Part shown: positions 5,143 through 23,073 of the stretch, in pieces
Layout: the number at the start of each line of letters is the position of its first letter
How positions within the stretch are numbered: the first letter of the stretch is position 1
DNA from: Bdellovibrio sp.
Lineage (GTDB): Bacteria > Bdellovibrionota > Bacteriovoracia > Bacteriovoracales > Bacteriovoracaceae
Direction: 5' to 3'
Assembly (NCBI GenBank): GCA_016187935.1
Contig: JACPIU010000030.1
Coordinates: 1 to 44,755, forward strand
Length of the DNA stretch: 44,755 bases
The notes under the pieces: model-generated
What the model was told of the DNA's origin: nothing
Database searches by the model: none
Seen by the model: the letters and a program-made list of their open reading frames with translations, nothing else
Translations under genes and position numbers: made by a program

Positions 5143-5270
5143 CTAGCAGGCCTTTAAAAAGGCCGAGATGCTAGGCGCGATTGAGTGAGCGCGGAGGCTT
5201 GCTAAAGGCAAGCCACACAAGCGAATGATTGAGCAACGACGCAGATTGGCCTTTTTCAATGGCCTGCTAG
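5143..5270. repeat. Palindromic intergenic element B, copy 1
   Basis: Outer arms CTAGCAGGCC (5143-5152) and GGCCTGCTAG (5261-5270) pair perfectly. After a small internal loop, AAAAAGGCC (5156-5164) pairs with GGCCTTTTT (5248-5256). Inside lies a core almost identical to copy 2, with a second hairpin GGCTTGC/GCAAGCC (5196-5202 and 5208-5214). The left arm starts directly after the methyltransferase stop, and a T-run (5275-5281) follows the right arm, so the element may also end transcription. An apparent reading frame on the minus strand through it is only a by-product of the repeat. Confidence 0.85.
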
Positions 5271-18897: not shown

Positions 18898-18927
18898 ATC
18901 AAGCTGAGTTGGGGATTAAGGTTAAGA

Positions 18928-19046
18928 GCCTATCCCAAAACCTTCAGATGCTAGGCGCGATTGAGGGAGCGCGGAGGCGTACACAGAGTGTACGCCGCAC
19001 AAGCGAATGATTGAGCAACGACGCAGATGAGGGTTTTGGGATAGGC
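18928..19046. repeat. Palindromic intergenic element B, copy 2
   Basis: Outer arms GCCTATCCCAAAACC (18928-18942) and GGTTTTGGGATAGGC (19032-19046) pair over 15 bases. The core (18946-18978) matches 5166-5198 of copy 1 with a single mismatch, and the right core matches as well. An inner hairpin GGCGTACAC/GTGTACGCC (18976-18984 and 18988-18996) replaces the different inner stem of copy 1. It lies between convergent genes, where it could serve as a terminator for both. Confidence 0.88.
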
Positions 19047-19052
19047 CCTAAA

Positions 19053-19490
19053 TCAGTTGCATTTGCTGGCCTGGATGAGCTGGACTGCTCGCGCTGGATC
19101 GTTCGAAGCCAGATAGTTAGATACACCTTTAACTTTTTTCAAGATGACGTTATTGGAAACGTTGCTATGGGATAGTAATTGGATTTCTGTTTCCACAATC
19201 ATATCGTGAAACAAATCTAAATCGACCAGCCCCTGGCGAGTTGTCTCCTTAAACATAAAAGTCCGGGCCTTGCGATGGCGCTCGCGTTTGGTGGGATGAT
19301 CGGACGGATAAGTTTCCAAAACATAATCAATAATTTGTCCCTTACCCTGATTGTTTTCCACCACTGGACGAATCAATCCAATGACACGATAAATCCCGCA
19401 ATTTTTAAAATCAAATTCGCCCACATCCACCGCTTGGCCGGAGATCGGCCAGGCAATTGCAAGAACAATAATCCAGAAAAGCTTTTTCAT
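19053..19490 (-). CDS. Small secreted protein coupled to a clan CD peptidase gene
   Basis: A 145-residue product with a signal peptide (MKKLFWIIVLAIAWPISGQA). The mature part is mixed alpha/beta, with only two cysteines: one in KNCGIYRV early and one near the end (SKCN). The ATG at 19490 overlaps the stop of the upstream peptidase-like gene by four bases (ATGA), so translation is coupled. That arrangement suggests a functional partner, such as an inhibitor, chaperone or substrate of the upstream protein; this is inference only. No family recognised. Confidence 0.7.
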   Translation of the reverse strand: MKKLFWIIVLAIAWPISGQAVDVGEFDFKNCGIYRVIGLIRPVVENNQGKGQIIDYVLETYPSDHPTKRERHRKARTFMFKETTRQGLVDLDLFHDMIVETEIQLLSHSNVSNNVILKKVKGVSNYLASNDPARAVQLIQASKCN

Positions 19491-21733
19491 CGGCAATCTC
19501 GCGCACGTGAAGGGGTTAAAGCGGAAGTCCGTGCTGCTTCACCTTCAGGAATTCCTTCCCGCTCACAGGCCAACAACTCAGCGTAGGCCCGAATCTGCTG
19601 CGGTTTTCCTTGTTTTAACAATTTGTAAACATTGGCCAATGCCTCGGCACCCGCTTTCGCCCGTCGTAAATTTTTAAATTTGGATTTATAGGCACCTTCC
19701 TTACCCCATTGGGCAAATTGCAAGGCCCTTTGCTTGTCCAGAACTTTGCGGATTTTCTCAGGGGCCTCTGCACGATCTTGATAGAGAAGAATTCGTGCCT
19801 GTTGCCGTTCTTCGAAGGCCACCCGTCGTCTTTGACAATTACATTTATTATACGCGTTGGTACAACTTGGATAGGTATATCCCATCCCAACACGTTCTGT
19901 GATTGTCCAAATGGGGAACTCCATCAAACCATCTGAGACAGATGCTTGACAGTCGGCATGCTGGGGTACATTGCTCAGATATTGATCGATATCATCCAAT
20001 CGCAACAATTCGCACCTCATCTGGCACGACGTTCTGTCCGAATGGCAGCGAATGGCAGCATCGTCCCCCACCACCAACGCCGGACACCTTCTGCAACCGC
20101 CACGGCATTTTTCTTCGGCCTGTGGCAGAAGTGCTCGTACCCGATCACAACGACCTTTCTGTTCATCACACACCGTCTTGGTTGTTTGCGCTTCTTCCTT
20201 GTATGATGAACTCTGGCGTGCCCTTTCCAATAATTCATTTTTCAATTGTTCTTCCGCGGCATTCAACGTTGCTTGTCCACTCAAACAACGACCGTCGCGA
20301 GATTCACATAAATGGCGGATGACTTTATCGGTACGTGCCTCTAAATTGAGCAATTTGTTCTTGGCGCTCTCAACCAAAGAGGCCAGCTCATCAGCGGCAA
20401 TGCTTTTTGTCTCAGAATTACTGGAGTTAAGCTGACGCTTCAGAAGAGCAGGAATAGTCACACCCAATTCTTTCGCCAAAGATTTATTAAGCTCTATCTT
20501 ATGCTTCAGTTCAGTCTCGGCCAGTTTCCCTTCCATGGTCTCCAAGCTTGAATCCATTTTGCGCATGTAACATTGAAGAGTGCTTATGCTCAAAGTACCA
20601 CAGCTTGAAAAACTTCGCTCACCCCCGGCCAGAGCAAGCATTTTTTTAAAATCATCACTCATGGCCTTGATCCGCTCTTCGAGCAGAGCGCGATTCCCGC
20701 TATCCACCGCGGCATGGAAAGTTTCTGTAATGCCAGCAGGAACCTCCGGCAAGTTTAGGCCCTGGGCAAGACACATTCCTCTCACCGTTTGGTTTCGGCC
20801 AGTTTGAGGATTTAATGCCGTGATATAAAGAGTGGAATCCTCTGACTCTTCCGGATACGGGTCAGGATTGAATACCACGTCCATTAAATACAGATCGGAA
20901 GAAAGTTGCGGCACCGAAGGGTAACAGCCATGGCGCATGGCCATGCGATGAAGTTCTCCATCACTGGGGGCCCGACCAAACTCTTTTAAAAAATCGGCAC
21001 GTAGTTTACCCAAGGTTATTGAGCTATAACTCCAGTCATTGGCATCAGCGGCCGCCACACCACAAACCGTCGAGCCAATACTATCAACACCGGCCTTCAT
21101 CAAAAGAGAAAGTCCTCCGCCGCTGTTGCAATGATCAAGCACCGCATGCACATTGGTGAGACGCCGGATAATATCGTCATTGATAATTTCCGTGGTACCA
21201 TCAGCGTTGGTTCGAATCGACATCCCATTATTCGCGCGGATAATCCCCGCCATACGGTAGTAGCTCATATTCCTGGAGCTGGCGGGTTCTGATTCGGCAT
21301 TGGGATTAAAGGCCGAAACGCTAAAGTCACCCCTGCTCGCCCCCTTACCACCGTGATCAGTCATGTAAAGTTGAAAGGAATCTCCTGTAAAATTAGCGTC
21401 ACGCAGACCGTTTTGAAAGTTGGTCTCAAAATTATTTACGGTAGCGACACCATCCGGCCGTGCCCACGGATTTAATCCTTCCCGTGTGGCCTCATCACTT
21501 CGCAGGCAACTGAATGCACCGCTGTTGCCCGACAATTTGGTGCCCTGACAATCGGCAGGCAAAGTCGATGAGTAACGAAGAAGGTCCAATTCGTAAGAGC
21601 TATCGTTCAATCCTGGGGCGCAAGTGGATGAAGACGCTCCGTTGAACATCAACGCCCGACAGGTTGTGGCCCAACTCAAAGAGCTGCTTATCGGCCCCAG
21701 TAAAAACAGGATAGGCAGGAAACACTTCACCAT
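19487..21733 (-). CDS. Predicted secreted clan CD (legumain/caspase-like) cysteine peptidase with coiled-coil C-terminal region
   Basis: This 748-residue protein has a signal peptide (to about residue 22). Within the first 240 residues are the two hallmarks of clan CD peptidases: a hydrophobic strand then Asp-His-Gly (LYMTDHGGKG, H127-G128), and a second strand ending Asp-x-Cys with a Gly/Ser turn (VLDHCNSGGG, C202). Spacing and order match legumain-type (C13) and related enzymes, which use this His/Cys dyad. Residues about 340-520 are charged and likely coiled-coil. Residues about 545-665 hold many Cys, including CRGGCRRC and CNCQRRR. The substrate is unknown. The relation to named families is an inference from the dyad motifs. 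Confidence 0.65.
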   Translation of the reverse strand: MVKCFLPILFLLGPISSSLSWATTCRALMFNGASSSTCAPGLNDSSYELDLLRYSSTLPADCQGTKLSGNSGAFSCLRSDEATREGLNPWARPDGVATVNNFETNFQNGLRDANFTGDSFQLYMTDHGGKGASRGDFSVSAFNPNAESEPASSRNMSYYRMAGIIRANNGMSIRTNADGTTEIINDDIIRRLTNVHAVLDHCNSGGGLSLLMKAGVDSIGSTVCGVAAADANDWSYSSITLGKLRADFLKEFGRAPSDGELHRMAMRHGCYPSVPQLSSDLYLMDVVFNPDPYPEESEDSTLYITALNPQTGRNQTVRGMCLAQGLNLPEVPAGITETFHAAVDSGNRALLEERIKAMSDDFKKMLALAGGERSFSSCGTLSISTLQCYMRKMDSSLETMEGKLAETELKHKIELNKSLAKELGVTIPALLKRQLNSSNSETKSIAADELASLVESAKNKLLNLEARTDKVIRHLCESRDGRCLSGQATLNAAEEQLKNELLERARQSSSYKEEAQTTKTVCDEQKGRCDRVRALLPQAEEKCRGGCRRCPALVVGDDAAIRCHSDRTSCQMRCELLRLDDIDQYLSNVPQHADCQASVSDGLMEFPIWTITERVGMGYTYPSCTNAYNKCNCQRRRVAFEERQQARILLYQDRAEAPEKIRKVLDKQRALQFAQWGKEGAYKSKFKNLRRAKAGAEALANVYKLLKQGKPQQIRAYAELLACEREGIPEGEAARTSALTPSRARDCR

Positions 21734-21831: not shown

Positions 21832-23073
21832 TTAAGGAACTTCACTGGCAGGACGACGTTTCAGAATCGTCCCCAGTCCAGTCAGGGTCCGCTTGACTTC
21901 ATCATTTTTTTGAAAGCCAATTTGAGTGATTTGCATTTCCAAGTCATGAATGTGGGCGGCCCCCCAAGCAATCACAACTAATTTTGATGTGGGAAGCACT
22001 TCGTTCAATTTAGAGAGCAACCTCTCATTTCTCTTCTTTAAAATGTCGCCAAAAATAGTTTTAAGGATACCCTCTTGTTTCATCATGCGATCAATTTCTA
22101 AAATACTACTGATGTTCAGATTGCTTTCTCCCGCTTTAGCTACGCTCAATAGGTTGATAAAATTGACAGTCTCGCGGCTTAGTTCAGAGGTATCCACATC
22201 CGCCCAAACAAATTTGATCTTGGTTTTCTCGGGGAATTTAAATTCATTTTTCTGCTCTGAAACACCAATCTTCTGGGCCAGATTTCCATAAAACAGTTCG
22301 CCTTTGATCAAACCTTTTGTGTCCTTGACTCCTTCCATAAGAAATACCGCTTCCTTATCGCGATAATCTTTCACAATCTCCTGATAAAACGAGGCATCTC
22401 CGATATGGGCCATGGGAAGCAGAACTATTTTTCTATCACCTTTGACAAAACTTCTTTCCACACAGACGAGATTGCCTTGATCGATGCTGAACCCTAGATT
22501 CTTATGCAAAATATAAAAAGGACTTATGAGAGAGATCATGATGGAAAGTGCAAAAAAAGCTCCAGACAGGACGGTGTTAAAAATTATTCTCGGGCCTCTC
22601 GAAGAATAATATTGCACTCTGAAAAATCTGGATGAATCATATCGAGAAAGCAAAAAGGCCATGATGCAAATTACAAGTTGCAGGAGATTCATAGTATAAA
22701 AAAAAGTTCTAAAAGTATTCCCTGTACTCATCAGAAAATGAAAATTACTGTACTGTGTAATGAAATCAAAAAAACTCACATGCTCAACTGCACTGAAAAT
22801 AAAAGGTGTTGAAACAAATGACGAGGTTAAAAGAAAAAGCGAAAGGATAAAAACATAATTTGAAATTCTTGATTGATAGATCACAGAAAGTAAAAGCGTA
22901 CCAAGAGCAAATATCCAAAGTAAGGATGAAAAAATATTGCAACAATTCATCAATAATTGGGACTGGGTTTGGAAAATGGTCACTAGCCCCGCATGCATGA
23001 ATCCGACACATGCCTCAAAGAAGGACAAAGCAATAAAAGCTCGAAAGATTCGATCAAGTATTTTGTTTGACAT
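21832..23073 (-). CDS. Membrane-anchored TraB/Tiki-like protein
   Basis: A 413-residue protein with about five predicted membrane spans (roughly 10-32, 45-65, 72-95, 125-143 and 165-188). These precede a soluble domain with TraB/PrgY/Tiki features: PMAHIGD (220-226), hydrophobic strand with MEGV (246-249), ADVD (291-294), RNER (348-351), and GAAHIHDLE (371-379), which contains the family's C-terminal G-x-x-H. Tiki/TraB relatives are metal-dependent proteases or signal-processing proteins; the biochemical role here is not established. It stands upstream of the clan CD gene on the same strand but about 98 bases away. Confidence 0.65.
   Translation of the reverse strand: MSNKILDRIFRAFIALSFFEACVGFMHAGLVTIFQTQSQLLMNCCNIFSSLLWIFALGTLLLSVIYQSRISNYVFILSLFLLTSSFVSTPFIFSAVEHVSFFDFITQYSNFHFLMSTGNTFRTFFYTMNLLQLVICIMAFLLSRYDSSRFFRVQYYSSRGPRIIFNTVLSGAFFALSIMISLISPFYILHKNLGFSIDQGNLVCVERSFVKGDRKIVLLPMAHIGDASFYQEIVKDYRDKEAVFLMEGVKDTKGLIKGELFYGNLAQKIGVSEQKNEFKFPEKTKIKFVWADVDTSELSRETVNFINLLSVAKAGESNLNISSILEIDRMMKQEGILKTIFGDILKKRNERLLSKLNEVLPTSKLVVIAWGAAHIHDLEMQITQIGFQKNDEVKRTLTGLGTILKRRPASEVP

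What the first reader, a model, noticed from the sequence alone, without database searches (positions are those of the whole stretch)
19053..21733. Secreted clan CD peptidase candidate with translationally coupled small partner
TDHG (H127) and LDHC (C202) with the right strand context suggest a legumain/caspase-like protease exported by a bacterium, with a large Cys-rich coiled-coil C terminus. The next gene overlaps by four bases, as expected for an inhibitor or accessory protein.
Basis: partly seen in the sequence, partly recalled or inferred. Interest (0 to 1): 0.65.

Follow-up and report, generated by a model that had tools for sequence, protein, structure and literature searches.

The report
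Secreted legumain-like protease with partner
The window encodes a secreted relative of the protease legumain whose gene overlaps that of a small secreted protein; this pair recurs across a phylum of bacteria that includes predators, and the small protein is probably the protease's own inhibitor.

Summary
Gene A (19487-21733, minus, 748 aa) is an exported caspase-haemoglobinase-type cysteine peptidase. It has no direct Pfam, NCBIfam or PDB sequence match. Stepwise profiles tie it to 13 homologues (hhalign 98.6 %, E 1e-15), and those match legumain in the PDB (E 2e-7) with His and Cys in register; one homologue passes Pfam Peptidase_C13. Catalytic His and Cys are invariant in all 90 aligned paired peptidases. 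Gene B (19053-19490, 145 aa) overlaps A by exactly 4 bp. It belongs to an unnamed family of ~110-160 aa exported, predicted beta-rich proteins with two conserved cysteines. That family was found in 79 of 369 genomes of the phylum. Of 101 distinct members recovered, 97 sit beside a caspase-like gene on the same strand, 72 downstream and 25 upstream. Pair distances correlate (r 0.66; best permutation 0.16). The best mechanism is a secreted peptidase made together with its own beta-barrel (OB-like) inhibitor, an arrangement like potempin/KLIKK or staphostatin-like/C10 pairs. Inhibition itself is untested; chaperone or activator remain rivals. The pair is a new variant of a known kind of system.

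The parts
19487..21733 (-). gene A: exported caspase-haemoglobinase-type (legumain-like) cysteine peptidase, 748 aa
21668..21733 (-). predicted export signal of gene A (residues 1-22, ...SLSWA|TT)
   Evidence: sequence inspection; hydrophobic N-termini in homologues
20834..21667 (-). catalytic domain of gene A (residues 23-300), the stretch that aligns with homologues and, through them, with legumain
21353..21355 (-). codon of predicted catalytic His127 (TDHG)
   Evidence: invariant H, 90 of 90 paired homologues; aligned with the TDHG of legumain
21128..21130 (-). codon of predicted catalytic Cys202 (LDHCNSGG)
   Evidence: invariant C, 90 of 90 paired homologues; aligned with the EACESG of legumain
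21062..21064 (-). codon of Cys224, a second near-invariant cysteine (89 of 90) of unknown, probably structural, role
19490..20833 (-). C-terminal helical, cysteine-rich region of gene A (residues 301-748)
   Evidence: low-confidence helices
19053..19490 (-). gene B: small exported partner, 145 aa, overlapping gene A by 4 bp (19487-19490); CGxYxxxG motif and C-terminal Cys

Best explanation
A two-gene unit encoding a secreted legumain-like cysteine peptidase and a dedicated small secreted partner that most likely binds and inhibits it. The peptidase is exported by its signal peptide and uses His127 and Cys202 as catalytic dyad in a caspase-haemoglobinase fold. The partner is translated from the same message through the ATGA overlap, is exported separately, folds as a small disulfide-closed beta-barrel (OB-like), and blocks the peptidase in the cell envelope until it is released or the complex is dissociated. 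This would protect the producer while the peptidase is meant for outside proteins, plausibly those of prey. Shown: gene structure, homology of the peptidase, dyad conservation, family-level pairing in both gene orders. Inferred: proteolytic activity, the OB fold, inhibition, cell location and the role in predation.
For: Peptidase: homologue profile vs PDB finds legumain and metacaspase-4 (E ~1e-7) with H and C in register. The window trio vs 13 window-free homologues: 98.6 %, E 1.4e-15, 223 columns. Homologue L027 exceeds the Pfam C13 cut-off. H 90/90, C 90/90. Pair: 97 of 101 distinct partners adjacent to a caspase-like gene on the same strand, 72 downstream and 25 upstream. In partner-seeded loci not already known as peptidase loci, 31 of 34 are paired by profile. 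Distances of the two proteins correlate, r 0.66 against 0.16 for the best of 1000 permutations. The window partner belongs to the family even when its genus is left out of the profile: only three of 260 ORFs score below E 0.01, and they are the three partners. Inhibitor: small, exported, two near-invariant cysteines, all-beta model, weak structural neighbours that are mainly OB folds and include the protease inhibitor potempin A. Precedents of protease genes paired with small inhibitors: PMC7296668, PMC3462683.
Against: No assay. The partner fold is low-confidence (pLDDT 65.6) and all structural matches are weak (best Z 3.4, no Foldseek E below 0.1). The own-genome paralogue L002 keeps the dyad but has no detected partner. 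Many more distant caspase-like homologues lack a partner (36 loci). A chaperone or activator would leave the same genomic trace. The distance correlation does not control for the species tree.
Confidence: 0.6

Rival explanations
1. The partner is a secretion or folding helper (a propeptide supplied in trans) that the peptidase needs to mature; it may also keep it inactive transiently.
For: Same adjacency and co-translation data. A folding role has been suggested for a staphostatin (cited in PMC3462683).
Against: The own-genome paralogue L002 (72 % identity) is intact without a detected partner. Structural neighbours include an inhibitor but no known protease chaperone.
Confidence: 0.2
2. The partner is an activator or an exosite/targeting subunit that gives the peptidase its substrate or place, so that the pair is a two-subunit enzyme.
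For: Stoichiometric co-production, conservation in either gene order, correlated divergence.
Against: Not specifically supported; no domain known to bind surfaces or substrates was found.
Confidence: 0.12
3. The protein is not a protease in action: a transamidase/ligase of the C13 type, or a catalytically silent scaffold.
For: GPI transamidase and asparaginyl ligases are also among the profile matches; no activity data.
Against: Dyad invariant in 90 of 90, which argues against a silent scaffold; ligase against protease cannot be told from sequence.
Confidence: 0.1
4. Chance TDHG/LDHC motifs in an unrelated lineage-specific secreted protein, and an accidental 4-bp overlap.
For: Single-sequence searches of Pfam, NCBIfam and PDB find nothing, and the small profile A6 finds no peptidase in the PDB.
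Against: Profile results and phylum-wide pairing.
Confidence: 0.01

Closest known systems
Legumain / MEROPS family C13 (Pfam PF01650)
   Same: TDHG and [DE]xCxSG blocks, order and spacing of the dyad; profile E 1.7e-7 to solved legumain; homologue L027 above the Pfam cut-off; helical C-terminal extension.
   Different: Window protein itself has no Pfam match; bacterial, exported, with a long cysteine-rich C-terminal region and a co-encoded partner; specificity unknown.
Prokaryotic metacaspases / caspase homologues (C14, PF00656; PMC3501461)
   Same: Same clan by profile (metacaspase-4 E 7e-8 to 1e-7).
   Different: PF00656 is not matched by the window or the ten homologues scanned; the published survey concerns PF00656 proteins and its text does not mention Bdellovibrio.
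Potempin/KLIKK protease pairs of Tannerella forsythia
   Same: Secreted protease with an adjacent gene for a small specific inhibitor; co-variation of pair members; PotA is among the weak structural neighbours of gene B.
   Different: KLIKK enzymes are not clan CD (own knowledge); potempins are lipoproteins and lie upstream, gene B has no lipobox and lies downstream; no sequence relationship shown.
Staphostatin/staphopain, Spi/SpeB and Bacteroides C10 protease/Bfi pairs
   Same: Cysteine protease and a small, mainly beta inhibitor in one transcription unit; in B. fragilis inhibitors lie upstream or downstream, as here.
   Different: Papain-like (clan CA) enzymes; staphostatins and Spi are thought to act in the cytoplasm, whereas gene B carries an export signal.

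Membership tests
Clan CD (caspase-haemoglobinase fold) | catalytic His followed by Gly and, further on, catalytic Cys, each after a hydrophobic strand | tested here: met
   FQLYMTDHG and HAVLDHC; H 90/90, G 89/90, C 90/90
Clan CD (caspase-haemoglobinase fold) | detectable homology to solved clan CD peptidases | tested here: met
   through the homologue profile; the five-sequence profile A6 alone found none
Clan CD (caspase-haemoglobinase fold) | predicted 3-D topology of the peptidase domain | tested here: inconclusive
   model from 3 sequences, pLDDT 42, not usable
MEROPS C13 / Pfam PF01650 | match to the family model at its curated cut-off | tested here: not met
   window protein: no match (own genome); met only by the homologue L027 (30.2 bits vs 22.8). 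So C13-related, not filed as a C13 member
MEROPS C13 / Pfam PF01650 | cleavage after Asn (or Asp) | not testable with these tools
   needs enzyme assay
C14 metacaspase (PF00656) | match to the family model | tested here: not met
   no match in window protein or ten homologues
Potempin | OB fold | tested here: inconclusive
   mostly OB-fold neighbours incl. PotA, but Z at most 3.4
Potempin | lipoprotein signal, gene upstream of a KLIKK protease | tested here: not met
   export signal without lipobox, gene downstream, partner enzyme is clan CD
Potempin | inhibits the co-encoded protease | not testable with these tools
   needs assay
Partner family found here (gene B family) | export signal, CGxYxxxG motif, C-terminal Cys, adjacency to caspase-like gene | tested here: met
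   weak if sequence is taken alone (hhalign 29.8 %; hmmsearch E 1.8e-3)

The most novel reading that the evidence does not exclude
A phylum-wide system of exported legumain-like peptidases, each with its own exported beta-barrel inhibitor of a new family, serving bacterial predation: would be a clan CD counterpart of the potempin network and a new class of natural inhibitors of legumain-type enzymes.
Probability: 0.4. Interest if true: 0.8.

Novelty: new variant of a known kind. Interest (0 to 1): 0.62.

Why it matters
Legumain-like enzymes are known mainly from eukaryotes (own knowledge). A large bacterial set with a conserved, un-named partner gives (1) a candidate new family of protein inhibitors for legumain/caspase-type peptidases, (2) a testable class of secreted effectors in a phylum of predatory bacteria whose reported secreted proteases include serine proteases (PMC5288813, PMC6510308), and (3) a clear gene-pair signature by which databases that now have no model for these proteins could annotate them.

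Tried and rejected
Single-protein searches in Pfam, NCBIfam and PDB gave nothing; a PseudoU_synth_2 hit (E 0.11), centriole and Ferredog-Diesel matches were chance. Five-sequence profile A6 against the PDB found no peptidase, so the link needs the wider homologue set. Pfam and PDB profile searches of the partner gave nothing above chance. C11/C25 families did not appear among profile matches; their absence proves nothing. RNA families in the window: none. Literature searches for legumain or caspase-like proteins in Bdellovibrio found no report of the pair; the library holds open-licence papers only. Adjacency figures from loci that were picked by the peptidase profile are biased towards the pair, so the partner-seeded subset was counted separately.

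Full report
WHAT IS THERE. The window is contig C24 of a 4.4-Mb genome. Gene A (19487-21733, minus) encodes 748 aa with an export signal; gene B (19053-19490, minus) begins on the ATGA of gene A's stop. Upstream on the same strand is a gene with a weak TraB/PrgY match (21832-23073), also present next to the orthologue in the same genus (L003). On the opposite strand lies a menaquinone-type gene cluster. There are no tRNAs and no Rfam matches.

PEPTIDASE. Alone, gene A matches nothing. A three-sequence profile found remote homologues in the phylum. Two of them (L011, L013) have the same layout: export signal, DHG, DxC, a long C-terminal region, and a small exported protein overlapping by exactly 4 bp. 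Adding them extended the family to 34 and then 91 of 369 genomes. The alignment of 17 divergent domains (mostly 16-24 % identity to the window) keeps H, G, C, G and one further Cys. Its profile matches solved metacaspase-4 (1.3e-7), legumain (1.8e-7) and GPI transamidase (5e-4), with H and C in register; legumain also shares the YxTDHG block. To avoid circularity I removed all window-type and L011/L017-type sequences: the remaining 13 (A9) still match legumain at 1.7e-7, and the window trio matches A9 at 98.6 %, E 1.4e-15 over 223 columns. L027 exceeds Pfam's cut-off for Peptidase_C13; L018, L020 and L024 match below it. In 90 aligned paired peptidases H is 90/90, C 90/90 and the second Cys (window C224) 89/90. 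I therefore file gene A as a clan CD peptidase related to C13, not as a C13 member, because the Pfam criterion was tested and not met by the window protein. The structure job from three sequences failed (pLDDT 42).

PARTNER. Among 87 complete homologue loci, 51 had a recognisable partner next to the peptidase: 39 downstream and 12 upstream. A phylum search with the partner profile found it in 79 of 369 genomes. I fetched 40 of those places. Leaving out five already known as peptidase loci and one where the partner ORF was not recovered, 31 of 34 have a caspase-like gene directly beside the partner on the same strand; a further one (L201) has a caspase-like ORF by eye. Over all loci, 97 of 101 distinct partners are paired, 72 downstream and 25 upstream; 39 allow a start at exactly -4. 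Gene order follows the peptidase tree (23 changes among three states, counting 'no partner' as a state, versus at least 45 in 200 shuffles). Pairwise distances of the two proteins correlate, r 0.66, and 0.61 among divergent pairs only, against permutation maxima near 0.16; relatedness of the species is not controlled for. The partner has an export signal, a CGxYxxxG motif and two near-invariant cysteines, one near each end of the mature chain, which suggests a disulfide. No Pfam or PDB profile match. AlphaFold of the window partner with 49 sequences gives an all-beta model, pLDDT 65.6, pTM 0.60. Structural neighbours are weak (best Z 3.4), mostly OB folds (RPA14/32, SSB, PriB, Ten1), and include the metallopeptidase inhibitor potempin A at Z 2.7-3.0. 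The window's own partner is a divergent member: hhalign without its genus gives 29.8 % over 17 columns, but the same profile in hmmsearch ranks the window, L003 and L011 partners as the only hits below E 0.01 of 260 ORFs.

MECHANISM. Two secreted products made from one message in fixed proximity, with either order allowed, is what a protease and its dedicated inhibitor look like. In T. forsythia, KLIKK protease genes are directly preceded by genes for potempins, small lipoproteins with inhibitory activity against the co-expressed protease (PMC7296668). In B. fragilis, C10 protease genes have staphostatin-like, mainly beta inhibitors (116-138 aa for the Bacteroides set) upstream or downstream (PMC3462683). 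I put an inhibitor at about 0.6, a folding/secretion helper at 0.2 and an activator/targeting subunit at 0.12. Proteolysis, binding, location and any role in predation are inferred. The paralogue in the same genome (L002, 72 % identical, dyad intact, no detected partner, near a contig start) shows that a partner is not strictly tied to every copy; it could be served in trans.

NOVELTY. Each ingredient has precedent: clan CD peptidases, and adjacent protease-inhibitor genes. The combination, the un-named partner family and its spread were not found in the libraries or open papers searched here. I did not test outside this phylum.

Noticed in passing
window 18926-19048: A 123-bp element with 15-bp or longer terminal inverted repeats (GCCTATCCCAAAACC), 11 near-identical full-length copies in the genome (15 matches in all, one partial also at window 5166-5246), folding strongly (z -8.2): a MITE/REP-like repeat just downstream of gene B.
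   Followed up: partly
L002:266-2473: A 71-72 % identical paralogue of gene A in the same genome at the start of contig C7, without the partner; followed by a 309-aa ORF without Pfam match.
   Followed up: partly
C-termini of homologues, e.g. L013, L020, L109, L122: Two conserved C-terminal signatures: LxxCE-type in one subgroup (CE/CD in the last 60 aa of 31 of 91 paired peptidases vs 5 % of background windows) and NPCKDFVL at the very end in the other. Role unknown.
   Followed up: no
L034, L039, L040, L109, L114-L116, L118, L122: In many members of a 'SCHSG' peptidase subgroup the partner lies immediately upstream of the peptidase rather than downstream.
   Followed up: yes
L121: Two partner genes and two caspase-like genes in tandem.
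   Followed up: no
L165, L166, L167, L184-L186: In one genus with several single-contig genomes (probably Bdellovibrio, not confirmed) the pair is followed by a conserved gene resembling queF (recognised by eye); the pair order there is peptidase then partner.
   Followed up: no
L067, L081, L096: Some paired homologues are much longer proteins (over 1000 aa) with additional sequence.
   Followed up: no
window 21832-23073: Membrane protein with a weak TraB/PrgY/gumN match, same strand and 98 bp upstream of gene A, syntenic in L003; possibly part of the same unit.
   Followed up: no
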